A stretch of 41,815 nt of DNA from Spartobacteria bacterium. GTDB lineage: Bacteria; Verrucomicrobiota; Verrucomicrobiia; Chthoniobacterales; Terrimicrobiaceae. Below, in pieces: positions 25,583-41,815 of this stretch. A model generated the notes under the pieces. That model ran no database searches and was not told the origin of the DNA. It saw only the letters and a list, made by a program, of their open reading frames with translations. The stretch spans positions 1 through 41,815 of the forward strand of contig CANMQB010000004.1 of assembly GCA_947499885.1 (NCBI GenBank), read 5' to 3'. Position 1 is the stretch's first letter, and the number at the start of each line of letters is the position of its first letter. Position numbers and translations under genes: made by a program.

Positions 25583-28500
25583 ATGAAAGTAATTACACAA
25601 ATCATCGGATGCGCGATTATCGCAGCTGCGCTTTATCTGGGAAGCAACGCACAGGCTCAAAGCACCCTGTATTGGGATAGCAATGGAGTGTCATCCGGGG
25701 CCGGAGTCTCTCCAAGCGGAACATGGGGGAGCGATTCTTTTTGGAACACAAGTGCCAATGGAACGGCTGGAACATTTTCGATTTCGCTTGATCCCGGTGC
25801 TGGCAATCCAACGAGCCGCGGAATTTTTTCAGCAGGGAACGACGCGACCAGCAGCTATGTAATCACCGTGAGCGGCACTCAGACTGCCAGTGGGCTCACA
25901 TTCAAAAATGGAACACCGACCATGACTGGTGGCACCATTTTGATGACTGCCAATTCATCGATATCAAACAACTCCACACTAGGTGGCACACTCAGAATCG
26001 CATCGGAACTTATCGGATCCACTTTGCTGGGAAACTCAACATTGAATCTCAACACTATGAACGGAACCGATGCCGTTGATTTCTTGGTAACGGGGAACAT
26101 AACGACGGATGGCAATAATCGATTGGCCCTTCGGCTCGGAGGAAATGGAACCGGTAGGATCGAAGGAGCCATTAAAAGGCACTATGGAAACATAGGAAGC
26201 GGGACGAGCTCTTGGACCGGCGTTTGGACGATTGCTGGCAATCAATCTTTGGTTGGGGATGACGGGACTGGATATACTAATTATACAGCGTTAACTCTTT
26301 CCGGAAACAATCACCTTGTGATGGGAGATAGCATCAATGATCGACAATCTTGGACGCATAGCGGTGTCACAAGCGCGAGGGCCACTCTAACAATTAACTC
26401 CAATGCAACGCTCACGGGAAGCACTCAAGTAAGTGGTAATGGTGGAACTATTTATATCAACGGGGAATATCAAAGCAAAAAACTGGTTTTAGGAGAGACC
26501 GACAATACATATGGAACCCTATCGCTCAACGGAACCCAAGCGACTTTTAATGAACTGGATTGTCGCGGTACCGGGATCAGTAAAATCGTTGGCTCGAATT
26601 CCAACTATGCCACGCTAACGATAGATAACAACATTACTGGAGTGCAAACTTTGACGTCGAACATCCAACTGGGTGGAAGCGATCCCAATCAAAACAATAT
26701 TCATGTGGTCAAAAGCGGAAGTGGCCATCTACTGATTGAAAGCATAAATAACACCTACACAGGTAATACAACAATTAAATCTGGCATTTTTGAAATCAGT
26801 TCAGACTCACGCCTTGGTAATGGTCTCTATGCGGCTTCGATCATCAACGATGGAAAAATTTTCTATAATGGAAATTTGGATCAAACCATCTCCGGATCGA
26901 TTTCAGGGAGCGGTGAGCTTGTGAAAAACAACACGAGTTCACTCATCCTAACGGGCAACAACACCTACACCGGTTTAACTTACGTAAATGGAGGTTCATT
27001 GGTAGCCTCCACAAGAAGTGTGATTGGAGATATTCATAATTATCGCACCGTCACCTTCGCTCAAGATTTCGACGGAACTTATGCTGGATCGATGAGCGCA
27101 ACCGGAGCTTTCATAAAAACGGGCACAGGGGCTCTCACATTGGCCTCTCCCAATTCCTACACCGGCGGCACTACAGTGAGCGCAGGTAGTCTCATTGGAA
27201 CAACAACTTCCGTGCAAGGAAATATCCTGAATAATGCCCTTGTGACATTCAACCAGAATTTCGATGGCACATTTACTGGATCCATGAGCGGCAATGGTTC
27301 TCTCCTCAAACTTGGAAGCGGCACCTTGACGCTTGCCACAGCCAATTCCTACAGAGGAGGCACGATTGTCACCGCCGGAGGTCTTACCGGCACAACAGAC
27401 TCCTTGCAGGGAAACATCCTTAATAACGCCTTGGTCACTTTCGACCAGAGTTTTGATGGGACATTTACTGGATTGATGACCGGCAATGGAACCCTCACCA
27501 AGTCGGGTTCTGGAAAAGTCACTATCATTAATTCTGTTCCAACGATCAGCACTACTATTTCAAAGGGTGATTTAAATGTGAACGGCGTGTTGGCGTCTCC
27601 GCTGATAACAGTCGAAAATACTGGTGCCTTGAGCGGTTCCGGTTTGATCATTGGAAATGTTATGAGCAAAGGCGTTGTCTCGCCTGGCAACTCTCCTGGA
27701 ATACTCACCGTTTTAGGTGACTACACGCAAGTTTCTGGTTCTACACTCAGGATAGAAATCGTCGATCATTCGAACTACGATAAGTTGATCGTTGGTGGAA
27801 AAGTCTCCTTGGGAGGTGGGTTGCAGGTTGTTCCTAGCCAGAGTCTCGCGGTAAAATATGGTGATCGTTTTGACATCATTCTCGCCGATCAAATTACCGG
27901 TGAATTCGAATCTATTGCCATCCAATCCGAAGCTTTTCGGGCGCAATTTGTCAATTTTGGAACGATCGGCGCTCTATTAATCACACCATCGGATCTCACT
28001 GAAATGGCAGTAACTCCGAACCAGGAGGAAGTTGCATCCGCATTAAATAACTATCGTAGAAGTGCTTGCCTGGATAGTGCCCGTGTAACTCTGGCTTTGG
28101 ATTTGCTCACTGCTGAGCAGTATTCAGCCGCTTTTGATCAAATTATGCCATCTATTTATGAAAGCTATACGGATCTCTCTGTCGAGCAGTCTTTCATTAA
28201 CATGCAAATGATCAATCAACGATTGGGTTCGGTCAGATTCGGAAGAACCGGATTTGCTTCATATGGGATAGACCAACCCATCAAATATGATCGCAATGGA
28301 CGAAGCGCCTCGGAACCATCGGATTTGAAGTCGCATGTTGAGGGATTCCAGGAAAAGGATTGGAATGTATGGGTTATGGGAACTGGAATCTTTTCAAATT
28401 CCCGAAACATGAACAGCATCCCCGACTATCGCAGCAATTCCGGAGGATTCATTGCAGGATCGGATTATGCTTTGTGTGATGAATTCACTGTAGGCCTCTA

Positions 28501-29206
28501 CTCTGGATACCAATACTCCTACACGCAATACGAGAATGACAGTTCGCTGGAAGCGAATACTCTGCTTTATGGCCTATACTCGAGTTTCGTAAAGGATGGA
28601 TATTTTGCAGATGCCGTACTTGGAGGTGGTTACACGGGGGGACAAGCCAACAGGGACATTCAGTTTGGCACACTGGATCGAACGGCAAAGTCCGACCCAA
28701 ACAATGTGTTATTTACTGCAGGGCTTAACCTTGGAAAAGATTGGAATCTCAAGAATTTCATCATTACGCCGATGGCTGGAGCGCAATATACTTATGTGGC
28801 ATGCCCTGAATTTACGGAAACTGGAGCTGAGAGTCTCGATCTCACTCTCAATCAACAAAATGTCAGCAGTCTCAGAACAACTTTGGGCGGCAGGATTGCC
28901 TATTCCTGGAAAGCCCCAATCAAGCTCTTCAGTCAAGCACTTCTCATCACGCCAGAAGTGAGAATGTTTTGGGTTCACGAATTCCTAGATGATGCGCGCA
29001 CCATGCAAGCATCCCTGAATGGATGTGAAGTTCAGTCTTTTGAGTATGTAACAAATGAGCCTATTCGAAATAGCGTTTTCGCAGGTGTGGGATTCTCAGC
29101 TCAAATCGGGGAAAATTGGAATTGCTCCGCATTCTACAATGCCGCATTTAACAGTAATAATCTGACAACAAACATTGTGAGTCTTGGATTGGGATTTTCA
29201 TTTTAG
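25583..29206 (+). CDS. Autotransporter with PATR-type beta-helix passenger and C-terminal autotransporter beta-domain
   Basis: Signal peptide MKVITQIIGCAIIAAALYLGSNAQA; repeated NNTYTG-T-V-GGSL/NSYTGGTTVSAGSL motifs; C-terminal barrel ending LGLGFSF. Confidence 0.92.
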   Translation: MKVITQIIGCAIIAAALYLGSNAQAQSTLYWDSNGVSSGAGVSPSGTWGSDSFWNTSANGTAGTFSISLDPGAGNPTSRGIFSAGNDATSSYVITVSGTQTASGLTFKNGTPTMTGGTILMTANSSISNNSTLGGTLRIASELIGSTLLGNSTLNLNTMNGTDAVDFLVTGNITTDGNNRLALRLGGNGTGRIEGAIKRHYGNIGSGTSSWTGVWTIAGNQSLVGDDGTGYTNYTALTLSGNNHLVMGDSINDRQSWTHSGVTSARATLTINSNATLTGSTQVSGNGGTIYINGEYQSKKLVLGETDNTYGTLSLNGTQATFNELDCRGTGISKIVGSNSNYATLTIDNNITGVQTLTSNIQLGGSDPNQNNIHVVKSGSGHLLIESINNTYTGNTTIKSGIFEISSDSRLGNGLYAASIINDGKIFYNGNLDQTISGSISGSGELVKNNTSSLILTGNNTYTGLTYVNGGSLVASTRSVIGDIHNYRTVTFAQDFDGTYAGSMSATGAFIKTGTGALTLASPNSYTGGTTVSAGSLIGTTTSVQGNILNNALVTFNQNFDGTFTGSMSGNGSLLKLGSGTLTLATANSYRGGTIVTAGGLTGTTDSLQGNILNNALVTFDQSFDGTFTGLMTGNGTLTKSGSGKVTIINSVPTISTTISKGDLNVNGVLASPLITVENTGALSGSGLIIGNVMSKGVVSPGNSPGILTVLGDYTQVSGSTLRIEIVDHSNYDKLIVGGKVSLGGGLQVVPSQSLAVKYGDRFDIILADQITGEFESIAIQSEAFRAQFVNFGTIGALLITPSDLTEMAVTPNQEEVASALNNYRRSACLDSARVTLALDLLTAEQYSAAFDQIMPSIYESYTDLSVEQSFINMQMINQRLGSVRFGRTGFASYGIDQPIKYDRNGRSASEPSDLKSHVEGFQEKDWNVWVMGTGIFSNSRNMNSIPDYRSNSGGFIAGSDYALCDEFTVGLYSGYQYSYTQYENDSSLEANTLLYGLYSSFVKDGYFADAVLGGGYTGGQANRDIQFGTLDRTAKSDPNNVLFTAGLNLGKDWNLKNFIITPMAGAQYTYVACPEFTETGAESLDLTLNQQNVSSLRTTLGGRIAYSWKAPIKLFSQALLITPEVRMFWVHEFLDDARTMQASLNGCEVQSFEYVTNEPIRNSVFAGVGFSAQIGENWNCSAFYNAAFNSNNLTTNIVSLGLGFSF
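26960..27535 (+). repeat. Three tandem 192-bp (64-aa) repeats inside the autotransporter passenger
   Basis: Units start at 26960, 27152 and 27344 with NTYTG/NSYTG/NSYRG and share QGNILNNALVTF-Q-FDGTFTG-M-GNG cores; units 2 and 3 are most similar. Confidence 0.85.
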
Positions 29207-29790: not shown

Positions 29791-31527
29791 TCACTGCTCC
29801 GGCTTTCCCACAATCCGTTCTGTCTCCAAAGGCAGGGCGTAGGGCTGAACGGATGAGTCGCCGCGGGCCTCCTTCACCATCTGGGCGCAGACCAAACGCA
29901 ATTCCTTGAGTTTCCCTGCGTATTTCAAATCATCGGCCAGATTGGCGGTTTCTCCAGGATCTGTCTTCAAATCGAAGAGTTCCTCGTGAACGGGCATCTC
30001 ACCGTGGAGCGAAGCATCCAGCCACTCGAGGTAAGCCTGTGCCTGGCGGTCGGTGACGCGTTGTTGGGCTTGATCAGTCATGCCCTCAAACAGCGAGGCA
30101 TCGTTCGAAAAATAACGGATGTATTTCCAACCATTACCCCGCACGCTTTCGCATCGTGGGTTCCCATAGCGCGTGCACCAAAGATTTTCCGAAAAGGCAT
30201 ATTCGCGCCATGGCACCTGTTCGCCCCTGATCAAAGGGCGAAGGGAGCGGCCACTCATCGCTGGGGGAATCTCCATGCCGGCGTAATCGAGAAGGGAAGC
30301 GGTCAGATCGATCGTTTGGACCGGCTCGGAGCAGCGCTGGCCGCGCGCCTTCGAGCGCGGGTCGTAGGCGATCAGCGGGACTCTGAGACTTGGATCATAG
30401 CAAAACCCTTTGCCCCCCAGTCCGAATTCTCCGAGCTGAATCCCATGGTCGGAGACGAAAAGGATAACAGTATTTTTCTCCAAGCCAGCCTCAAGGAGGG
30501 CTGATCGAAGGTTGCCGACAAAGTTGTCGATGCTGGTGAGTGTTTGATATCGGCGCACGATGCGTTCCACGATTTCCTGAGGCGTATCGACATAGTTGTA
30601 GGATTTTTGCCTGTGCTGCGAACGCAGAAGCTCCGGAGGAAGTTTCGGATTTGTTATGTCCGCCTTCGCCGTGTAAGTGACGGGAAGATTCGCCCGGATG
30701 GCATCGCGATCGCGGTGATAGGCCGTTTTATACAAGTCGGAGTCCGAGGGGCGATCCGCCATGCTTCCCGTGCCGGCGTCGTGGGGGAGATTGAAACAGA
30801 TCGATAGACAAAATGGACGGTCGTGTGGACGCTTCTCCAAAAACCGCGCTGCGCGGTTGAAGAAGTCTTGGTTTGGGTTCAGGAAATTCTGCACGCCTTC
30901 TTGCAAGACTTCGATTTGGGTATCTGCCTTCGCATTGTCGAAGAGGCGCTCATCGATTCCTTTCACCCTCATCGCCCACGCCGGACGGTTTTTCGGATAA
31001 AAGAGCAGGTGCTCGTGTCCCCCATACCAGTAGTCGAAACTGGCATCCATCAGGCCTGTCTCGTAACCCCTCGCGCCGACCGGCACATGGTTTTTCCCGA
31101 TGTAGCCGATGAAGTAACCTGCCTTGCGGAGAAGCATCGGATAGGTTTGCTGCCAGGCGGCCGGCGAAAGTGCCGTGCCGGAATTGAAGTTGATTCCATG
31201 GCGGCGCTCGTGCATCCCCGTGAAGATCGAGGCGCGACTCGGAGTGCAGACCGGGCTCGTCACAGTGGCTTCGGTGAAAAGCGTCCCTTCAGCCGCCAGT
31301 CGGTCGAGGTTCGGTGTTCGCACGACGGGATTGCCGCTGCATCCGAGTTCATCGGCACGTTGGTCGTCTGTCACGATAAGGATGAGATTGGGGCGTCCAT
31401 CGGAGTTGGACGGGAGCTCAGATTTCGGCGAGAGGCTTGAACTCTGCAGTGGCGATTGCTCAACGGCCTGGAGGCTCGCCGTTGAAATGAGGACAAGGGT
31501 GGTTAAAAATGTGAATGGTTTTTTCAT
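29791..31527 (-). CDS. Exported S1-type sulfatase
   Basis: Signal peptide; LILIVTDDQRADELGCSGNPVVRTPNLDRLAAEG; C-x-P-S-R formylglycine motif in VTSPVCTPSRASIFTG; FVSDHGIQLGEFGLGGKG. Confidence 0.93.
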   Translation of the reverse strand: MKKPFTFLTTLVLISTASLQAVEQSPLQSSSLSPKSELPSNSDGRPNLILIVTDDQRADELGCSGNPVVRTPNLDRLAAEGTLFTEATVTSPVCTPSRASIFTGMHERRHGINFNSGTALSPAAWQQTYPMLLRKAGYFIGYIGKNHVPVGARGYETGLMDASFDYWYGGHEHLLFYPKNRPAWAMRVKGIDERLFDNAKADTQIEVLQEGVQNFLNPNQDFFNRAARFLEKRPHDRPFCLSICFNLPHDAGTGSMADRPSDSDLYKTAYHRDRDAIRANLPVTYTAKADITNPKLPPELLRSQHRQKSYNYVDTPQEIVERIVRRYQTLTSIDNFVGNLRSALLEAGLEKNTVILFVSDHGIQLGEFGLGGKGFCYDPSLRVPLIAYDPRSKARGQRCSEPVQTIDLTASLLDYAGMEIPPAMSGRSLRPLIRGEQVPWREYAFSENLWCTRYGNPRCESVRGNGWKYIRYFSNDASLFEGMTDQAQQRVTDRQAQAYLEWLDASLHGEMPVHEELFDLKTDPGETANLADDLKYAGKLKELRLVCAQMVKEARGDSSVQPYALPLETERIVGKPEQ

Positions 31528-33209
31528 TGTATTCTTCCAGTGGTGAGTTTGGCGATGAGGGAAGCCCGCATGCGTTTTCGGATTTGCTCATGCGTCACAT
31601 CAGGCGATTCGGAGTAAACCAGTTCGCACGGCACATCGAGTTGCCGGAGGCGTTCTTGGAGTTTTACGCCGAAGTTGGCGGAGTGGGTGGGGTCCTTTTG
31701 TTCGTGGCCGATCTTTGGCGCGTCGCCGTAATACAAAGCCACCGGCGGCGCATCAGAGGCGGCCAACGCGTAGGGCGAGTATTCCGCAATCCAAGACAGG
31801 ATCGACTCGCGTTGTTCGAGGAATCCCTCGAAACCGCCTTTCACGCCGAAAGCATGGCTGCCGTAGCGGCTGTTGGGGATCCATTCCTTCATCTGTTGCG
31901 GATCAAGCGTGGTCTGTGCCGCCCACACGGCTGCGCAATACGGACGTGTGCTCTCGCGCGCCACCGGATCGGGGCTGTTCGGGTCGGCCATGTCTTTGTG
32001 AAATGCCAGCCAGAGCGAAGAGCATGCGCCAGCTGACCCGCCGGTTAACGCGATGCGGTCTTTGCGAATGCCCCATTCATCCGCCTTGCTGCGCACGAAC
32101 TGCAAGGCTCGTGCGGCATCGTGCATGGGCCCGCGCACCGGGGGGACGATGCCCTCGGCGTTTGCTTGGGCGATGAAACGATAATCCACCGACACCACCG
32201 AGATGCCGGCATTCAAATAGTCCTCGAGACCCTCGACATCGCGCCGGGTCCCAGTGCTCCAACCTCCGCCATGAATGACCAAGACGGTCGGCGTGGGGTG
32301 TGGCGAATCGGCTCTCCAAAAGTCAAGGACCTGTTTGTCATGCGGCCCGTAGGCCACCAAGCTCTGTGTGGGAGGAACCGCGTAAGTGTTCTGGCGAATG
32401 AATCGCACGATCTCCGCTGGGTCCGACAGCCCGTGCGGATGGTGCCCTTCGTCGGGTTGCCTGAGGAGGCGAAAGAAGAGCCCCCTGCTCTCGTAGAACT
32501 TTTGCAGCACCGCGCCATTTTCGCTGTAGGGCACGACCTCGTCCTTTCCCCCAGCGACATAAACAATACCCGCCCGGGTGGCTGCGAGCTCCTCGGTGAG
32601 GTCCACCGGATTTTGCTTGTAGGCCAACGCCTCCGCCTCGCTGGCAAAACCATAAACTTTCCAGAGTTCCTCCCAATCCTTCGGGCTTCCCGCACCCTTG
32701 CCGAGCTTACCGCCCGGCCAGCTTTTGAAATCGCAGACCGCTTTGTCGAGATAAAGGCACGAGACCTTGCCAGGATTCTCCGCCGCCCAACGCAAGGCCC
32801 CAAGGCCCTCGTGGCTTAAACCCATCAGCGCCACCTCGCGCGACAGGCTGTATCGCTCCGTCATCTCCCGATAAGTGGCATCCCAGCGCTTATCCGGATC
32901 GGGTGCCCCCAGAATGGCCCCAGGTGCCATTGCCACAACATGGAACCCTTGTTTGACAAGTTCGGATTGCGTCCGCGCCAAGTTTGCCACCGGAGCGCTA
33001 CTCGGATCGTAAAGTCCGGGCGCAAGCACCCAGGGCCGCCCTGAGGCAGGCTTGTCGGGAACCAATACCTGCGCTTGCGCCGCGCCAACCGGCACCTTGG
33101 ACAGAGGCACACCAAGGTGTGTGCTCTGGGGAGAGGGAAACGATCCCCCCGCGCACAAAAGAATCATTGAAGCCGGTAGCATGGTCAAAATTGTGAGGAA
33201 CTGTTTCAT
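31524..33209 (-). CDS. Exported protein with two alpha/beta-hydrolase (esterase) domains
   Basis: N-domain GLSHEGLG nucleophile-type elbow; C-domain VIHGGGWSTG and GGSAGACSS; 4-bp overlap with sulfatase start; ATG at 33209 preferred. Confidence 0.85.
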   Translation of the reverse strand: MKQFLTILTMLPASMILLCAGGSFPSPQSTHLGVPLSKVPVGAAQAQVLVPDKPASGRPWVLAPGLYDPSSAPVANLARTQSELVKQGFHVVAMAPGAILGAPDPDKRWDATYREMTERYSLSREVALMGLSHEGLGALRWAAENPGKVSCLYLDKAVCDFKSWPGGKLGKGAGSPKDWEELWKVYGFASEAEALAYKQNPVDLTEELAATRAGIVYVAGGKDEVVPYSENGAVLQKFYESRGLFFRLLRQPDEGHHPHGLSDPAEIVRFIRQNTYAVPPTQSLVAYGPHDKQVLDFWRADSPHPTPTVLVIHGGGWSTGTRRDVEGLEDYLNAGISVVSVDYRFIAQANAEGIVPPVRGPMHDAARALQFVRSKADEWGIRKDRIALTGGSAGACSSLWLAFHKDMADPNSPDPVARESTRPYCAAVWAAQTTLDPQQMKEWIPNSRYGSHAFGVKGGFEGFLEQRESILSWIAEYSPYALAASDAPPVALYYGDAPKIGHEQKDPTHSANFGVKLQERLRQLDVPCELVYSESPDVTHEQIRKRMRASLIAKLTTGRIQ

Positions 33210-33219
33210 CAATTCAGTG

Positions 33220-34284
33220 TCAACCACCCGCTCCCGTTCCACAGACCTCTGCCGGCCGATTGAGCGCGAGGATGAGCAGGAAAGAATCCTGTGAATTCAC
33301 AGGCTGGGCAGCCAAGCTCAAGAGTTGGGGACAGCCATTTTCAAGCAGAAGTTTTGGCATTTCCAGCCTCTGGAAATTTTGTTGCACTCCGTCTTCCCAC
33401 GCGATTGAGAAGTCTTTGACGAGCAGATGTGGAGACGGGTGCCAATCGAGCCCGTCGGGCGATTCGAGCAAGAGGAGGCTTCGGCCATGCGGCGTTAAAA
33501 ATGGCTCGTCATGATCCTTCACAATTGCGTAGTAGCGGTCGTTTTGGAACCACTCGAAGTGATCGTCGATGTGGAATTGGAAGTGATGGTCAACCTCAAG
33601 CCACTTGCGTTTATCCACCATCGGTGTCGGATCACGCTGGAATGGACCGAGCGGACCCGGAGCCGTTGCAGAATAATGGAAAACGCCTCCTCCGAAATTT
33701 CCCGGCCCGGGAGCGAGTGTTTTGTAATAAAGGCGCACGCGGCCGTCCGGCAACACGAGGGCATTAGGCACGGCGGTGATGCCGTATCCAAAGTCAGGTC
33801 CAACATCGAGCAGGGGCCCCTCGCATAGCTTCCATGGCCCTTGGGGAGCATCAGCGACAGCTACACCGATTCGTTGGTTGTTGCGGTGCACCCACCATTC
33901 TTCCGATGAGATATCGATCTTCCGGTCAGGACGCCACGCATCGGACCCGCAGTTGCCGGTGTAATAGAGATAGAATTTGTCGCCGTAGGGGATGACGCAG
34001 ACATTGTAAACCGAGTGGGCGTCCCAAGACATATTCGTTTGAGCGGATAAAACAACGGAACGGAATTCGTAGGGGCCGGCTGCCTCGGTTGCCGTGGCCC
34101 ATGCGATTTCAGCATGTGTGGCCCATGCGTCAAAGCCGAGGGACCTTTTCCAGCGGGAATAGAAAAGATGATGATGTCCATCTGAACTGCGGATCACGCA
34201 AGGATCCCAAAGACACCAACCCTCCTGCTGGAAAACCGCCTTGCGGGGCACTCTTGCCGGAATCAGATTTGCGAAGTCGATCAT
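33220..34284 (-). CDS. Glycoside hydrolase-like five-bladed beta-propeller protein (GH43/GH117-like fold)
   Basis: WCLWDPCVIRSSDGHHHLFYSRW, MSWDAHSVYNVCVIPYGDKFYLYYTGN; ATG at 34284 preferred over 34350. Confidence 0.65.
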   Translation of the reverse strand: MIDFANLIPARVPRKAVFQQEGWCLWDPCVIRSSDGHHHLFYSRWKRSLGFDAWATHAEIAWATATEAAGPYEFRSVVLSAQTNMSWDAHSVYNVCVIPYGDKFYLYYTGNCGSDAWRPDRKIDISSEEWWVHRNNQRIGVAVADAPQGPWKLCEGPLLDVGPDFGYGITAVPNALVLPDGRVRLYYKTLAPGPGNFGGGVFHYSATAPGPLGPFQRDPTPMVDKRKWLEVDHHFQFHIDDHFEWFQNDRYYAIVKDHDEPFLTPHGRSLLLLESPDGLDWHPSPHLLVKDFSIAWEDGVQQNFQRLEMPKLLLENGCPQLLSLAAQPVNSQDSFLLILALNRPAEVCGTGAGG

Positions 34285-34389
34285 GCCTTGCCTTTCAAGA
34301 TCTCGCTCCCAGAGGGCACCGCAGGGTGTTTTCCAGCAAGCAGACCACACGGAATGTCATTTTTTGGACAATCTCAGATTTCATCCTTT

Positions 34390-36468
34390 TCAAGGCGAGG
34401 GATTCTCATGCTCGGTGACCAGCTTGGCGGTGACCAATCGCGGGAAACCGCCGCTTTCCATTCTTGGAAACGACAGGGTCAGGGTATTCTCACCTTCCCT
34501 CAGGCTGGTAAGCGGGACCTTTCCCACGGCAAGACCATGAAAATTCTTCACGTCTTTGGACCAGGTGACATCGAAGTCCGATAGGGCGACCCCGTTGACT
34601 TTGACCTCGGGATTCTCGGCAAAGCCACCATCCCGCGCGAGGCCGAGGGAGACACGGGCCCCCACGATGCGACCGGGCCATTTTGTCAGCGGCAGCTTGA
34701 TCTCAAGGGGTTCGCCAGGCTTGATCTCCAGAAGCGTGGCGGGAGCATAGCTGAAGATTTCCGTGACACGCGATTCTGTTTGCGGTTCGGCTGAAAGCGT
34801 CAGTCGCACGATGGCGGTCTCTTCTCCGCGCAGTTCCAGTTTCGACAAATCCGCGAGCGGTTGGTAGTCGGCGATTTGCTCGATGTGCAGGCCGCCGGAG
34901 GCGGTTTCATCGCGTTGGGGGTCGGGAATATTGCCCTCGTAGTAGAGCCTGCGGACCTCTGTGCTCACGATGCGGATGGGCTGACCCTTCGCATCCAGCC
35001 CAAGGTTTGCCTCGATCGAAGCGACGGCTGGGTGCCGTGGAAATCCCCGACTGTTGTGAATGAGAAGGTAGGCGACCTTGCCATCTAGGAAACTTCGCAC
35101 GCGCAGTGCGTCGCCCTGCTGGCCATCGGCAACCTGCGTTGGAACCCGACGGCCCTTAAGCTCCTTGAAAAACTCGTAAAACTCCCGGAAGCGCGTCACT
35201 TTCACTGAGAAGTCATCCGGCGCATCGGGGCGGGTGTAGATGGCCATACCACGCTGAGGTGCATGGCCTTTGGCAGACTCACCCAAGATGAACGGCACCG
35301 TCAGCTCCACTTCGGGCCGTTCCATGTAGGTCAGCCACTGGCGAATCACGGTCGTCATATAGAGCCATGGTTTAAAGTCGTTCTTCCATGGACCAAATTG
35401 CGGATGAACTGTCTGGTGGCCGAACTCCGAGATGATCATCGGCTTGGGCTGCGACACCTGAAAATACTGCATGTGGTACGCGGCGAAGAGATCGAGATAA
35501 GCGTCAAGCCGTCCGTATTCCCAAACCGTGCCGATGCCCAGCCGCTGGGCTTCATACAAACTCGGCTCGGGCACGCGCTTGGCCTGCCATGCCGGATCCG
35601 GTGGCAACGACCAGTGGCCTTTGCTGTAGAAATGCAAGTCGTAAGCGCCGACGCAATCGCCCGCCTGCTCGATGAACGGTTTCTGCGTATTCTCCCAGCT
35701 TTTCCAATCCGCTCCGGGATACGGCCACGCGCTACAGGGACCGCTCACCTTCACCTCTGGATGATTCTTGCGTAGGCCATCCGCCACCACGCGGGTGAGA
35801 TTTGCCAAGTGGTCATCCCATTCCCCTCCCGGTTCATTCTGGATCGTCCACCAACTGGGTGGCGAGCAGTTCGAGGCTTTCAGGGTGTCGAACCATGCAG
35901 AAATGATCTCGGCACATAGCGGATAAAATTCCGGGCGCGGCACCTCTTGCAGGAACTTCTCATGGTCTTCGAGAAGTTCTTTCTTCGGTGCACCCGGCTT
36001 TGGCGCGCGCATCCATTCCGGGTAACCAGAGAATGCCATGGCGTGTTTGGCGCCGGGATATTCCCACGCCGCGTTCTGAAATGCGCTCACATAGCTGTTC
36101 AAGGTATTCTTGAGCGACTCCGGCGTTGGTCGCCCCGGATGCTCCGCGTCCTGCTGCAACCCGCCAAGGTTTTTCTCATCGACAGAGGAGTTGAAGACGA
36201 GAATGCCACGGCCAGGCACCGCGCCGATCTCACCGAGTTCGCGATTCCGCTCCGCGCTGAATGATCCCGGTGGATAGTAGCTGCGGAAGTAAATGTTCCG
36301 ATCGAGATGTGATTTTTCGAACGCTCCGACACGAATGGCGCGGTCCTTGGTCAGGTCGATTTGGATCGTCGCCGAGTAAGGCGCTTGATGTGCTGTTTGA
36401 TCTTCCGCGTTCAGAGCTCCGCAGAAAATGAACAGGCAGGTGGAAAGCAGGGGAACAAATGACCTCAT
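34390..36468 (-). CDS. Exported glycoside hydrolase, clan GH-A-like (possibly GH86-related)
   Basis: Signal peptide; WWTIQNEPGGEWDD (candidate acid/base NE), PMIISEFGHQTVHP (candidate nucleophile E), C-terminal beta domain; family assignment is tentative. Confidence 0.6.
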   Translation of the reverse strand: MRSFVPLLSTCLFIFCGALNAEDQTAHQAPYSATIQIDLTKDRAIRVGAFEKSHLDRNIYFRSYYPPGSFSAERNRELGEIGAVPGRGILVFNSSVDEKNLGGLQQDAEHPGRPTPESLKNTLNSYVSAFQNAAWEYPGAKHAMAFSGYPEWMRAPKPGAPKKELLEDHEKFLQEVPRPEFYPLCAEIISAWFDTLKASNCSPPSWWTIQNEPGGEWDDHLANLTRVVADGLRKNHPEVKVSGPCSAWPYPGADWKSWENTQKPFIEQAGDCVGAYDLHFYSKGHWSLPPDPAWQAKRVPEPSLYEAQRLGIGTVWEYGRLDAYLDLFAAYHMQYFQVSQPKPMIISEFGHQTVHPQFGPWKNDFKPWLYMTTVIRQWLTYMERPEVELTVPFILGESAKGHAPQRGMAIYTRPDAPDDFSVKVTRFREFYEFFKELKGRRVPTQVADGQQGDALRVRSFLDGKVAYLLIHNSRGFPRHPAVASIEANLGLDAKGQPIRIVSTEVRRLYYEGNIPDPQRDETASGGLHIEQIADYQPLADLSKLELRGEETAIVRLTLSAEPQTESRVTEIFSYAPATLLEIKPGEPLEIKLPLTKWPGRIVGARVSLGLARDGGFAENPEVKVNGVALSDFDVTWSKDVKNFHGLAVGKVPLTSLREGENTLTLSFPRMESGGFPRLVTAKLVTEHENPSP

Positions 36469-37976
36469 GGATTCGCCCCTTTCTGAATTGGCCGCAGAGT
36501 GAACTCATGAGGCATTGGCTGAGCCGCCTTCCGGGCGGCTTGCATAGCGGCCTCGGCTTCTTGCTGGATTGCGTCCTCATTAGGTTTCATCTCCAGATAT
36601 TGCCGGTGGGCCTGCTCGATAACCGGATTCTGTTTGGCCCGTTCGAGACGGGCATCGAGCTTGGCGGTCATTTGCGTCTGGTCGATCGGTCGTTGTGCAT
36701 CCGGCCAGGCGGCGTGCTCGCAGACAGCCAAATTGCGGAGCTTGGCCACAGCATCCCACTTCATTTGAAGTGCAGCCAACACTGCCAGAGACTGCTGCGC
36801 CTGTGGAGTATTGGCTTCCTCTGCGAGATTCACCCCCTGAGCCAATTCCGCAGCCGTCAAATCGCGGATTTTCTTTCCGTCAATCTTCAACTCGTAACCG
36901 CCGGGGGGGAGGCCTCTGACCGTGAGAAGTTGCTGGTTGAACTCTTGCTTGAACGGCACCCAATCCAATGCGGCTTTGGCTGATGCTTCGAACGGAAATG
37001 GCAAGGCATTTTCCATACAGGTGAAAACGATCCCCCCATCGTCAACTTTCAAGTCACTCACCGAGCAGTTTTTCAATTCGCCAACCTTCTTCGCGGCCGC
37101 GTCAATCGTGATGCTGGAAACCACACCAGCCAAACCCTGGGCACGGAGAAATTCGTAGGCCATCACAAAATGACCGGGAGGTGTCGGGTGAATCCGGTCA
37201 CCGCCAACTATGGTAAAGCGGGGATTTTCCTTCTGCTTTTCCACATTGATCGCCGCCATGGGGCCATTGAAGTCAACACAGGGCAATTGGAACTCGCCAG
37301 CCATAGCCCGCACACGCTGGGCAAACCCAGCCAAAGCAGGCCCGCAGCCCGGATAATTGGTGCCCGTGACATCCGCTGTATCATCAAAAATCGATGGGGT
37401 GATGAGAATGACTTTCACTCCCGACTCCAGCAATGACTTCGTCAATTGGCGCATGGCCACTTCGTAGGTTTCCGCAGCCTTGGCACGACGGCTTTCGTCG
37501 CCTCCGGGCGCGTAAAGACCTGGAGAGACATCATTCATCCCAAGCATCACAGAAACCGATGTTGGCTTCGCATCCAGGCAGTCCCACTGCAAACGCCGCA
37601 GCGCTCCTGGTGCGGTGTCGCCGGAAATGCCGCAGTTGATGACATCCAGCTTCTGCGAGGGGAATCTGGTCAGGTAGAATAGTTCGACGTAGCGGTGATA
37701 CTGGCCGCTGCGCGTGATGCTGTCGCCCAGCACACCCCATCGCTCTCCGTCGATGAAAGGTGCGGGAGCAATGGGACGGGGTTCCGTGGCCCACAAGGTC
37801 GAGCTGGACGTCACTCCCATGCCGAAGGCGATCAGGGCAAGAACGGCGAAGAAATTTCGACGAGGTGAATCTATTGCCGTTCGATCAGGTGTGCCGATCG
37901 GTAGGGCGATGGGGATCGGCCTATTGGGTTTCTCTGGATTGGTTGGGCATTCTGTGCTGTTGCTTCGTGTTTTCAT
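36465..37976 (-). CDS. Exported SGNH/GDSL hydrolase
   Basis: WGVLGDSITRSG, INCGISGDT, MLGMNDVS, DRIHPTPPGHFVMA. Confidence 0.88.
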   Translation of the reverse strand: MKTRSNSTECPTNPEKPNRPIPIALPIGTPDRTAIDSPRRNFFAVLALIAFGMGVTSSSTLWATEPRPIAPAPFIDGERWGVLGDSITRSGQYHRYVELFYLTRFPSQKLDVINCGISGDTAPGALRRLQWDCLDAKPTSVSVMLGMNDVSPGLYAPGGDESRRAKAAETYEVAMRQLTKSLLESGVKVILITPSIFDDTADVTGTNYPGCGPALAGFAQRVRAMAGEFQLPCVDFNGPMAAINVEKQKENPRFTIVGGDRIHPTPPGHFVMAYEFLRAQGLAGVVSSITIDAAAKKVGELKNCSVSDLKVDDGGIVFTCMENALPFPFEASAKAALDWVPFKQEFNQQLLTVRGLPPGGYELKIDGKKIRDLTAAELAQGVNLAEEANTPQAQQSLAVLAALQMKWDAVAKLRNLAVCEHAAWPDAQRPIDQTQMTAKLDARLERAKQNPVIEQAHRQYLEMKPNEDAIQQEAEAAMQAARKAAQPMPHEFTLRPIQKGANP

Positions 37977-38012
37977 GGGTCTTTCTGGGTTTTCTGGGGA
38001 GGCCGTTGGATT

Positions 38013-39239
38013 TCAGTCGCTCTTTCCTTGGCTTTTTCGTTGAGGTGAAGAGCCCGTTTCGACTTGGAGCATCATTTGTTTGACCTCCTCACCGGGATCA
38101 AATTTCCAGACCGCCTTGCCGAGGACATCTTTTCGTTGGATGACCACCTCCGGATGGGTGGCGACGGATCCAAGCATCGTGAGTTGCTCTCCCTCGGTCT
38201 TCAGGACGCGGCTGAATCGCAATCCGCCTTTGCTGTCGCGATAGATCACGACATCGGTTGGCCGCACCTCTTCCAATTGAAATGCGAGACCGCGCTTGTA
38301 GATCACAAAATCTCCGGTGCGATACTCCGGCGCCAGAAAGTCGCTCCCGAGTTTGGCATAGCCAAAACAGGTCGTGCCACCGAGCAGGAGAAGCACGCAG
38401 ACTGCGCCACCAACCGAGGCGACGCGGAGCGCTCCACCCCGCATCAAGTCTGGAGCGGCTGCGAGCGGAGACGGTGGGGATGTCGCTCCCCGGGTGTGGC
38501 AAATGAACTCCCAGAGTAAAAACACGAACAGAACGGCCAGGCCGACATCCACCCACAGCGGGGTGGAGAATGAGGCCCCGCCGAAATAAAGCAGAAGGAC
38601 TGCGAGCGAGTTATTCAGCGCGTGCCAAAGAATCGCAGGATAAATCGACCCCGTCCGCCATGCAATAAACCCGATCCCGACGCCGAAGAGAATTGGCCCG
38701 ACAAAGTTGAAGGGATTCAGATGAATCAGCCCGAACATCAAAGCACTGAACGCAACGGCCCGCACCGGTCCGCGCTTTTCAAGCGTGCCTTGGAAGGCCC
38801 CCCGGAAGAGCACTTCCTCGCAAATCGGCGCAGCAATTCCGATCACGCAAAGATTCTGCAACAGGTGCTGGGGTGTTTTCGGTGTCACGATTTGCATCAA
38901 GGCTTCCAGCGCGGGAATCCAATCGGGAAAGAAATGGAGCGCAAGCGGCCGTGTCGCCTGATCAACCAAGGTGGCCAAGCCCATGCCCGTAACGGCAAGA
39001 AGCACCACACGCCACAAGACTCCGGCGGATACCGGACGCAGGCGCAATGCCTCTTTGATCCCGGCTGTTTTCCATTTCGCATAGACCAAGGAGGGCAAAA
39101 ATAGGCCCAGCACTTGCGCGGTGAGCACACCACCGATGATCGAAAAACTTTGGAGAAAGATCGACGCGCCGATGTAGAGCGTCGTGGCGAGGCACAGCAG
39201 CACCCACGCATCACGCGTGGGTGCCTGTGTTCGTGGCAT
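38013..39239 (-). CDS. CPBP family intramembrane metalloprotease fused to an S26/S24 signal-peptidase-like C-terminal domain
   Basis: CPBP motifs ICEEVLFRG, FGLIHL, WHALNN; C-terminal LAPEYRTGDFVIYKRG...RPTDVVIYRDSKGGLRFSRVLKTEGEQL...RKDVLGKAVWKF resembles the signal peptidase fold. Confidence 0.85.
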   Translation of the reverse strand: MPRTQAPTRDAWVLLCLATTLYIGASIFLQSFSIIGGVLTAQVLGLFLPSLVYAKWKTAGIKEALRLRPVSAGVLWRVVLLAVTGMGLATLVDQATRPLALHFFPDWIPALEALMQIVTPKTPQHLLQNLCVIGIAAPICEEVLFRGAFQGTLEKRGPVRAVAFSALMFGLIHLNPFNFVGPILFGVGIGFIAWRTGSIYPAILWHALNNSLAVLLLYFGGASFSTPLWVDVGLAVLFVFLLWEFICHTRGATSPPSPLAAAPDLMRGGALRVASVGGAVCVLLLLGGTTCFGYAKLGSDFLAPEYRTGDFVIYKRGLAFQLEEVRPTDVVIYRDSKGGLRFSRVLKTEGEQLTMLGSVATHPEVVIQRKDVLGKAVWKFDPGEEVKQMMLQVETGSSPQRKSQGKSD

Positions 39240-39247
39240 CAAGGGAG

Positions 39248-39718
39248 TCAATGAGAGCCTCCCGCCTTACCGGAGTGGGCTTCGATCAAAGCATCCACCA
39301 ATTCCATATTTTCCTTCGTATTCCGAACGATCAACGCACCGCCGGGAAGAACTTGAGCCAAGGCTCCCTCAGGGAAAGGGACGCCCAAAGACTCGAAAAC
39401 CTCAGTCAGCGGGGCCGACGCGTTAGCGGGCGATGCCTTTCGCAGGGAGGCAAGCAACTCCGACGAGGCGGTGTATTGTTTGGTGACAAGCGAACCTTGC
39501 GATGTCGCTGCTGGCTCAGCGGCGCTAAGGTTGGAATCCATTCCCATGCTGAAGGCGGTGAAGAGGGCAACGACTGCCAAAAGAATTCGACGAGGAAAAG
39601 ACAGGAACTGCCGGGCTTCCGTGCCGATCGGAAGGGCGATGGGGATTTTCTTTCCGTTTGCCGATTGATTCGGATGGATCATTGCAAAACGTATGTTTTG
39701 TGGCTCACGAGCCATCAT
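39248..39718 (-). CDS. Small exported protein with a secretin/STN-like short domain
   Basis: Hydrophobic leader, then LTEVFESLGVPFPEGALAQVLPGGALIVRNTKENMELVDALIE, reminiscent of short domains in Verrucomicrobia secretin-like proteins. Confidence 0.6.
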   Translation of the reverse strand: MMAREPQNIRFAMIHPNQSANGKKIPIALPIGTEARQFLSFPRRILLAVVALFTAFSMGMDSNLSAAEPAATSQGSLVTKQYTASSELLASLRKASPANASAPLTEVFESLGVPFPEGALAQVLPGGALIVRNTKENMELVDALIEAHSGKAGGSH

Positions 39719-41481
39719 TCTTTACCCATGTCGCGAACGAGGTGTACTGCGGCCAGCGTCACGCCGCAGCGGCGGAGCAGGCTCGCGGGAACGCCAGTTG
39801 CGGAGATGGTCAGGCGATGGGGGCCTTCACCGAGAGAGACTTTCCCGAGTTTCACTGGGCGCCTCTCGTAGGAGCAGAGTTTCGATTGATTGCCTTCCGG
39901 CGGATCATAAACGGCAGAGACCGTCTGGCCTTCGCATTCGGCATGGAGAGCGAACCCGACATCCCAATCGCCATAGAAAAAGGTTTGAAGAATCGCTTCG
40001 ATGGCATACTCACCGGACATTGCTGCATAAAACTCCCAAGTCAGTCGCACATCGTCGCTGAACCAGCGCTCTGTGACGCCCGACATCGATACGCAAGCGC
40101 GTGAATCCGCGTTTTTTTCAAGCACGGCACGCCGGGCTCTCATTTCGATGACTCCATTTTCATTTTCCACCAGCCGGTTATCAATCCGAGGGGCCTCGAC
40201 GAGTTCCACGCGGATCACCGCGCAGTGTGCATCCGGCGATTGCTGCGGAAGGCGCAAGCGAAGCTCCGGCGGAAGCACTCCCTTATCAATTTGCTCAAAG
40301 GCCAGATCCTCCTGGGTCGCGAGCAGGGTGCAGCGGGCAACCTTGCTCAGAAGCCCCATAAGAGAAACGCTCGCCTGCCACTCTTGGATGAAGAGATAGA
40401 GATTGTTTCCTTTGGCAGTGATTTTTCCCCATGAAGGAGGAACATCAAAAGGAGAGCCTTGAGTTCCATAGATCGCCTCGCCGTTGACTCGCAGCCAAGT
40501 GCCCATGCCCTGGAGCCGATTCTGGGCCTCGTCGGGAATTTGCCCCAATTCATCTGGGCCTACGTTGAGAAGGAAATTTCCCCCGGCACTGGCAATCTCG
40601 ACCAGCTCGGAAATGAGCTTGGAGGTGGTCCGATAGGGATTCTCCTTGTTGGTATTGTGTCCCCAACTGCGATTCATCACCATCGGGGTTTCAAAATCGA
40701 TACCCCGCTGGTCGGGAATCTCATTGTCTCCGCAGCTCAGGTAGTCGAATTCTGCACTTTCGCCGATCCGGCTATTGATGATGCACTCTGGGCAAATTTC
40801 TCGAACGATATCGATGAGTTCCTGCGCTTGATCCGGGCGGATCAGACTTGGCGTGTCGAACCAGATTAATGCGGGATTGTATTGGGTTAAAATCTCTCGC
40901 AAATGAGGTTTGGAGACCTCATCCAAGAAAACTTGGAGGTTTTTCTTCTCCTCGTCCGGATAGTCCCAAAAGTTGCCATAGTTTCCAATGTGGATCGCAT
41001 TATGAGGATCCAAGCTCTGGGCGTGAGGATGCCGCCATTCCCGCACATGGGAGAAATAGAGGCAGAACTTGATGCCCTCTTCGCGGCAGGCTTCTGCCAA
41101 CTCGGCCATGGGGTCGCGTTTGAACGGGGTTGCATCGATGATGTTGTAATCGTTCACCTTACTGCGGAACATGGCGAAGCCGTCGTGGTGTTTGGCCATG
41201 GCGACGATGTATTTCATCCCGGCATCTTTGGCGATCCGCACCCACTCGCGGGCATTGAACTCTACGGGATTGAATTGGGCTGCCAGTTGGTCGTATTCTT
41301 TAACAGGAATCCGCCGCGTGTATTGCACCCACTCTCCTGCGGCTTTGAGAGCATAGACTCCCCAGGTGATCATCATTCCGAATCGGGCTTCCCGCCACCA
41401 GGCGAGGTGTTGGTCCTTTGATTGGCTCATTTCATTGTTGGTTTTCATTGTTGGTTTTGAGAGTGGATTATGGCTTTTCAT
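39715..41481 (-). CDS. Alpha-L-fucosidase, GH29 family
   Basis: QHLAWWREARFGMMITWGVYAL, AKHHDGFAMFRS, YNPALIWFDTPS (candidate nucleophile Asp), GNFLLNVGPDELGQIP; no obvious signal peptide, exact start uncertain. Confidence 0.92.
   Translation of the reverse strand: MKSHNPLSKPTMKTNNEMSQSKDQHLAWWREARFGMMITWGVYALKAAGEWVQYTRRIPVKEYDQLAAQFNPVEFNAREWVRIAKDAGMKYIVAMAKHHDGFAMFRSKVNDYNIIDATPFKRDPMAELAEACREEGIKFCLYFSHVREWRHPHAQSLDPHNAIHIGNYGNFWDYPDEEKKNLQVFLDEVSKPHLREILTQYNPALIWFDTPSLIRPDQAQELIDIVREICPECIINSRIGESAEFDYLSCGDNEIPDQRGIDFETPMVMNRSWGHNTNKENPYRTTSKLISELVEIASAGGNFLLNVGPDELGQIPDEAQNRLQGMGTWLRVNGEAIYGTQGSPFDVPPSWGKITAKGNNLYLFIQEWQASVSLMGLLSKVARCTLLATQEDLAFEQIDKGVLPPELRLRLPQQSPDAHCAVIRVELVEAPRIDNRLVENENGVIEMRARRAVLEKNADSRACVSMSGVTERWFSDDVRLTWEFYAAMSGEYAIEAILQTFFYGDWDVGFALHAECEGQTVSAVYDPPEGNQSKLCSYERRPVKLGKVSLGEGPHRLTISATGVPASLLRRCGVTLAAVHLVRDMGKE
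41432..41457. repeat. Tandem 13-bp duplication at the GH29 start
   Basis: CATTGTTGGTTTT repeated twice immediately; on the minus strand AAAACCAACAATG x2, changing which ATG is used. Confidence 0.6.
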
Positions 41482-41673: not shown

Positions 41674-41815
41674 AGGCCCAGCACTTGCGCGGTGAGCACA
41701 CCGCCGATGATCGAAAAACTTTGGAGAAAGATCGACGCGCCGATGTAGAGCGTCGTGGCGAGGCACAGCAGCACCCACGCATCACGCGTGGGTGCCTGTG
41801 TTCGTGGCATCAAGG
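41674..41815. repeat. 142-bp near-identical direct repeat of 39103-39244 (5' end of the CPBP protease gene)
   Basis: Base-by-base match with one mismatch (A39132 versus G41703); repeat runs to the window end. Confidence 0.95.

What the first reader, a model, noticed from the sequence alone, without database searches (positions are those of the whole stretch)
38013..39239. CPBP protease fused to a signal-peptidase-like domain that appears to have lost its Ser/Lys dyad
CPBP motifs (EEVLFR, FGLIH, HALNN) look intact. In the C-terminal S26-like domain, SDFLAPEYRTGD aligns with the usual SGSMEPTLxxGD, so the catalytic Ser is Phe; LRFSRVLKTEGE aligns with the usual KRVIGLPGD, so the Lys is Ser. This could be a peptide-binding pseudo-peptidase guiding an intramembrane protease.
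Basis: partly seen in the sequence, partly recalled or inferred. Interest (0 to 1): 0.6.

Follow-up and report, generated by a model that had tools for sequence, protein, structure and literature searches.

The report
Membrane protease with disarmed peptidase domain
One bacterial protein joins an intact-looking membrane-embedded protease to a second protease-like domain that has lost its cutting residues; a distant relative has the same arrangement, so the dead domain is probably kept to bind or position substrates, although no activity has been tested.

Summary
The minus-strand ORF at 38013-39239 (probably starting at TTG 39251) encodes a nine-helix protein. Its N-terminal two thirds is a CPBP/Rce1 glutamic protease domain (Pfam 9.5e-22) with every catalytic residue intact. 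Its C-terminal domain has the LexA/signal-peptidase fold: Foldseek's top hits are LexA, lambda repressor and the naturally dyad-less SipA, and two signal peptidases lead a panel of about 1,600 decoy ORFs in profile comparison. One full-length orthologue turned up (L063, another family of the same class, about 41% identical). It also lacks the dyad (H321/S363), yet its C-terminal domain is nearly as conserved (39%) as the CPBP part (44%). So this is a maintained pseudo-peptidase fusion, not decay. It is rare and patchy: absent from 15 congeners and from the other related genomes sampled. In the window it sits in a glycoside-hydrolase/sulfatase operon, but the orthologue's context differs, so the neighbours do not identify substrates. 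Predicted topology puts the dead domain in the periplasm. Best reading: it captures or gates exported-protein segments for the CPBP site. That mechanism is inferred, not shown.

The parts
38013..39251 (-). CPBP / pseudo-signal-peptidase fusion gene (412 codons from TTG 39251; 408 from ATG 39239)
   Evidence: TTG overlaps the upstream stop codon and has GGGAGG 6 nt before it
38590..38867 (-). CPBP (Rce1-like) core, residues about 125-217: E141 E142 R146, F169 H173, H206 N210
   Evidence: Pfam PF02517 9.5e-22; residues invariant in 32 homologues; PDB fold matches 6u0o SpdC and 4cad Rce1
38364..38438 (-). Ninth transmembrane helix (residues about 268-292), linking CPBP to the C-terminal domain; only 12.5% identical to the orthologue
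   Evidence: hydropathy, AlphaFold helix 269-300, identity
38016..38366 (-). C-terminal LexA/signal-peptidase-fold domain (residues 292-408), predicted periplasmic
   Evidence: topology
38337..38339 (-). F301 at the position of the catalytic Ser
38211..38213 (-). S343 at the position of the catalytic Lys/His
39248..39718 (-). Upstream gene in the same operon: small predicted exported protein (156 aa) with a weak secretin short-domain-like match
   Evidence: NF042912 partial 9.1e-8; stop overlaps the TTG start of the fusion gene
29791..41481 (-). Surrounding operon-like run: alpha-L-fucosidase, small exported protein, fusion gene, GDSL hydrolase, unassigned 692-aa protein, GH43-like, esterase, sulfatase
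   Evidence: several start/stop overlaps of about 4 nt

Best explanation
A CPBP-type intramembrane glutamic protease, probably active, carries a C-terminal periplasmic LexA/signal-peptidase-fold domain that has lost its Ser, Lys/His and box-D Asp but is kept by selection. The domain most likely works as a non-cutting binding or positioning module. It holds an extended segment of an exported or membrane protein (for example the end of a signal peptide or the stretch next to a transmembrane anchor) so that the attached transmembrane part enters the CPBP cavity and is cleaved there. Shown: gene, architecture, intact CPBP residues, fold class of the C-terminal domain, absence of the dyad in both known members, similar conservation of both halves. 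Inferred: periplasmic side (positive-inside rule, nine helices), CPBP activity, peptide binding, and the guiding step. I put the anatomy at about 0.9 and the guiding mechanism alone at about 0.35.
For: CPBP residues invariant and CPBP fold matched to SpdC and Rce1. C-terminal domain matched to LexA, lambda repressor, SipA and signal peptidases and to signal peptidases by profile, with controls. Dyad replaced by F301/S343 here and H321/S363 in the orthologue. C-terminal domain 39.4% identical between the two against 44.2% for the CPBP part and 12.5% for the linking helix: the domain, not the linker, is constrained. Loops rich in Lys/Arg lie on one side and place the domain on the other, where signal-peptidase domains normally sit. 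Precedent: SipA keeps the cleft, lacks the dyad and is essential for pilus polymerisation (PMC4049620).
Against: No activity or binding data. The domain model has modest confidence (mean pLDDT 68.5 from two sequences; TM about 0.5; no Foldseek hit below E=1e-3), and in the full-length model the domain is poorly placed. Some CPBP proteins are not proteases (SpdC, LnsB; PMC7387801), although those lack catalytic residues that are present here. Peptide binding was not detected for SipA either (PMC4049620). With two members, conservation of a binding cleft cannot be assessed.
Confidence: 0.45

Rival explanations
1. The C-terminal domain is a gate or size filter rather than a specific binder. Like the periplasmic PDZ domains of site-2 proteases, it blocks large ectodomains from reaching the CPBP site and admits only already trimmed substrates.
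For: Same anatomy: an extracytoplasmic domain tethered by one helix to an intramembrane protease. It does not require a conserved cleft. The site-2 protease comparison is from general knowledge.
Against: A pure steric gate would not need to be a signal-peptidase fold. The domain is nearly as conserved as the catalytic half, though two sequences cannot separate fold from surface conservation.
Confidence: 0.25
2. The CPBP part is not used as a protease. The protein is a membrane scaffold or chaperone whose two protease-like halves both act without cutting, as proposed for SpdC and LnsB.
For: SpdC is the best PDB fold match, and CPBP proteins of S. aureus act in cell-envelope and surface-protein roles without catalytic residues (PMC7387801).
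Against: Unlike SpdC and LnsB, all CPBP catalytic residues are present and invariant here and in the orthologue.
Confidence: 0.15
3. The C-terminal domain is still an active peptidase through other residues, such as S299, S343 or conserved K375/K379, or through a swapped Ser/His pair.
For: S299, S343, K375 and K379 are conserved in both members. The orthologue has His at the Ser site and Ser at the Lys/His site (H321, S363).
Against: The His of a swapped pair is F301 in the window, so the pair is not conserved. No conserved Lys aligns at the base position. Box-D Asp is also missing.
Confidence: 0.07
4. The gene is a decaying or chimeric artefact, for example an assembly join or a degenerating fusion.
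For: The contig end carries a 142-nt near-copy of the gene's 5' part (41674-41815), so an assembly problem exists nearby, and the genome is a draft of 277 contigs.
Against: An orthologue in another family aligns over residues 7-395 with the same fusion and no internal stop. GC3 matches the neighbours.
Confidence: 0.04

Closest known systems
CPBP/Rce1-like glutamic intramembrane proteases (Pfam PF02517)
   Same: Fold, all motif residues, eight-helix core.
   Different: Extra ninth helix plus a periplasmic LexA/signal-peptidase-fold domain.
ABC_perm_CPBP (NCBIfam NF041647)
   Same: Closest NCBIfam match for the CPBP part (1.8e-40).
   Different: Far below the family cut-off (139 vs 435 bits); no ABC permease domain.
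Streptococcus pyogenes SipA (PDB 4n31, PMC4049620)
   Same: Signal-peptidase fold without Ser/Lys, extracytoplasmic; among the top PDB fold matches.
   Different: SipA stands alone, in a Gram-positive pilus operon; not fused to an intramembrane protease; its dyad positions are Asp/Gly, not Phe/Ser.
Archaeal/SipW-type signal peptidase I (TIGR02228), including Bacillota proteins with an N-terminal multi-helix domain (L202, L203, L204)
   Same: C-terminal domain related by profile; similar overall layout of helices followed by an S26 domain.
   Different: These keep Ser and His. Their N-terminal membrane domain could not be shown to be CPBP-like once controls were run.
SpdC/LyrA and LnsB (S. aureus CPBP proteins)
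   Same: CPBP fold; cell-envelope roles.
   Different: They lack CPBP catalytic residues (PMC7387801) and have no signal-peptidase domain.

Membership tests
CPBP/Rce1-like protease | EExxxR, FxxxH and HxxxN catalytic motifs | tested here: met
   E141, E142, R146, F169, H173, H206, N210 invariant in 32 sequences
CPBP/Rce1-like protease | CPBP fold | tested here: met
   AlphaFold helices pLDDT about 90; PDB matches 6u0o and 4cad, probability 1.00
CPBP/Rce1-like protease | Proteolytic activity | not testable with these tools
   needs an assay
Type I signal peptidase (S26) | LexA/signal-peptidase beta fold | tested here: met
   moderate confidence (TM about 0.5)
Type I signal peptidase (S26) | Catalytic Ser | tested here: not met
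   F301 here, H321 in the orthologue
Type I signal peptidase (S26) | General base Lys or His | tested here: not met
   S343 here, S363 in the orthologue
Type I signal peptidase (S26) | Box-D GD(x)N acid residue | tested here: not met
   GSVA here, GRNN in the orthologue, against KGDNN
SipA-like pseudo-signal-peptidase | Fold with dyad absent | tested here: met
SipA-like pseudo-signal-peptidase | Conserved peptide-binding cleft | tested here: inconclusive
   only two sequences; no coordinates available to map the cleft
SipA-like pseudo-signal-peptidase | Sortase/pilus gene cluster | tested here: not met
   no sortase or pilin gene in the window neighbourhood
ABC_perm_CPBP NF041647 | Score above the curated cut-off and ABC permease domain | tested here: not met
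   139 vs 435 bits; only profile positions 420-635 matched
Myxosortase-type CPBP (MrtS, MrtJ, Mrt_core) | Score above the curated cut-off | tested here: not met
   45 vs 130, 34 vs 75, 19 vs 100 bits

The most novel reading that the evidence does not exclude
A signal-peptide-directed intramembrane protease: a disarmed signal peptidase binds the end of a signal peptide (or of a tail anchor) without cutting it, and the fused CPBP domain then cuts the peptide inside the membrane. This would be a protease whose substrate reader is a retired protease of a different catalytic class.
Probability: 0.15. Interest if true: 0.72.

Novelty: new variant of a known kind. Interest (0 to 1): 0.47.

Why it matters
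How bacterial CPBP intramembrane proteases choose their substrates is largely unknown. A natural fusion to a signal-peptidase fold that cannot cut is a direct, testable hint that the two kinds of protease can share a substrate, with one half binding and the other cutting. It would also add a second, unrelated setting, next to SipA, in which a dead signal peptidase is kept. The literature searches made here found no description of such a fusion; the library is incomplete.

Tried and rejected
1) Idea that Bacillota SipW-type signal peptidases with an N-terminal multi-helix domain (L202-L204) are mirror images with a dead CPBP and a live S26: an untrimmed profile comparison gave 51%, but trimmed profiles scored no better than reversed sequences or unrelated membrane proteins. 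Rejected as unsupported. 2) Weak C-terminal-domain hits in the order: those inspected were unrelated proteins such as a cupin-type dioxygenase-like family. 4) phmmer against PDB sequences: nothing. 5) Operon neighbours as substrates: not supported by the orthologue's context. 6) The rank-9 decoy-panel hit to the genome's own LepB (L198) aligned the wrong region and is not counted as support.

Full report
What is there. The minus-strand ORF at 38013-39239 encodes 408 residues from ATG 39239. A TTG at 39251, overlapping the stop of the upstream gene and preceded at six bases by GGGAGG, is the likelier start and gives 412 residues. Residue numbers below count from the ATG. Hydropathy and the AlphaFold model show nine long membrane helices followed by a soluble C-terminal domain.

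CPBP part. Pfam PF02517 matches at 9.5e-22. In 32 aligned homologues the residues E141, E142, R146, F169, H173, H206 and N210 are invariant. The full-length model matches SpdC (6u0o) and Rce1 (4cad) in the PDB with probability 1.00. NCBIfam's nearest model is the CPBP half of an ABC-permease/CPBP family, far below its cut-off. So this half looks like a competent CPBP protease; activity is not shown.

C-terminal domain. Sequence evidence is weak by single-family search (TIGR02228 E=0.018, below cut-off; no S26 or S24 match in Pfam) but consistent by other routes. A profile built from the two known members, run on ORFs of the fetched loci, gave as one of its best non-self hits (E=0.065, second by E-value) a signal peptidase aligned through SSDSMSP/GSDFLAP. 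Profile-profile comparison with five archaeal/SipW-type signal peptidases gave E=1.4e-5, 80%. With the membrane helix trimmed off it gave E=6e-5, against 0.74 for the reversed profile. Against 1,614 unselected ORFs the two best non-self matches were signal peptidases, and a third ranked eighth. A model of the domain from two sequences reached pLDDT of about 67-87 over the core, and its best PDB matches were LexA, the lambda repressor C-terminal domain, SipA and signal peptidases, nearly all at probability about 1 but with E just above 1e-3 and TM about 0.5. Together I take the LexA/signal-peptidase fold as established at about 0.9.

Dyad. Gapless alignments around the Ser box put F301 opposite the catalytic Ser in L144, L200 and L206. 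In L206, a bacterial-type enzyme with VKRVIG, S343 falls on the catalytic Lys. The A3/A4 alignment shifts the second position by a few residues because of a gap, so S343 is slightly less certain. The box-D GD.N acid is also gone. S299, conserved in both members, lies two residues before the lost nucleophile, where E. coli signal peptidase has Ser88, an oxyanion-hole residue (from general knowledge).

Is the loss maintained? A full-length orthologue exists in another family of the same class (G368, locus L063: about 41% identity, aligned over residues 7-395, no internal stop). Its equivalents are H321 and S363. The C-terminal domain is 39.4% identical between the two, the CPBP part 44.2%, and the helix that links them 12.5%. 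A domain that was merely rotting would not keep pace with the catalytic half. The gene therefore encodes a stable pseudo-peptidase fusion, and the chimera or pseudogene reading is very unlikely. GC3 of the gene matches its neighbours.

Distribution. It is absent from all 15 congeners, from the rest of the order and class sampled, and from the 73-genome genus of the orthologue apart from G368 itself. Genome searches totalled 1,768 with overlaps, so roughly a thousand or more distinct genomes. Most hits elsewhere are CPBP-only proteins. Sampling was even, not exhaustive, and some searches used strict cut-offs. The gene is accessory and patchy.

Context. In the window the gene sits in a minus-strand run: fucosidase, small exported protein P0002, this gene, GDSL hydrolase, an unassigned 692-aa protein, a GH43-like protein, an esterase and a sulfatase, several with about 4-nt overlaps. 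The orthologue instead lies beside a PMT-type glycosyltransferase and an efflux system, at a contig edge. The neighbours therefore do not identify a substrate, and P0002 is not an obligate partner. The genome has a separate canonical signal peptidase and a second CPBP gene.

How it probably works. The Lys/Arg-rich loops (53-64, 149-158, around 195, 247-267) lie on one side; counting nine helices puts the C-terminal domain on the other, the periplasmic side, where signal-peptidase domains normally face. A binding domain there, tied to a CPBP cavity in the membrane, would suit capture of exported-protein segments. SipA is the precedent for a dyad-less signal peptidase with an essential non-catalytic role, although its peptide binding was not detected (PMC4049620). 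CPBP proteins without catalytic residues (SpdC, LnsB) show that the fold can also serve as a scaffold (PMC7387801). Guiding is my first choice; a steric gate and a pure scaffold are real rivals.

Limits. Two members only, modest model confidence for the domain, no coordinates to map the cleft, no biochemical data, and a draft genome with a suspicious 142-nt repeat at the contig end.

Noticed in passing
41674-41815: The contig end carries a 142-nt, 99% identical copy of 39103-39244 (5' part of the fusion gene) joined to an alpha/beta-hydrolase-like tail. Probably an assembly artefact at a contig end, but a real partial duplication is possible.
   Followed up: partly
37894-37976 and 39624-39718: The GDSL hydrolase and P0002 share a similar N-terminal leader (PIALPIGT ... 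signal peptide) with a near-identical 20-nt core found only at these two places in the genome and in none of 15 congeners. They flank the fusion gene.
   Followed up: partly
39248-39718: P0002 is a small predicted exported protein whose C-terminal part weakly resembles a short domain of the Amuc_1098 pilus secretin family (partial match).
   Followed up: no
L202:661-1899, L203:1477-2676, L204:1477-2739: Bacillota SipW/archaeal-type signal peptidases (Ser and His present) with a roughly 270-residue multi-helix N-terminal domain that matches nothing in Pfam; relation to CPBP tested and not supported.
   Followed up: partly
L135:112-1689 and L155 (526-aa ORFs): Chloroflexi/Anaerolineae CPBP proteins with a further roughly 310-residue C-terminal part without a Pfam match: another unassigned CPBP fusion.
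   Followed up: no
25583-29206: 1207-aa autotransporter with PATR repeats on the plus strand, next to the carbohydrate operon.
   Followed up: no
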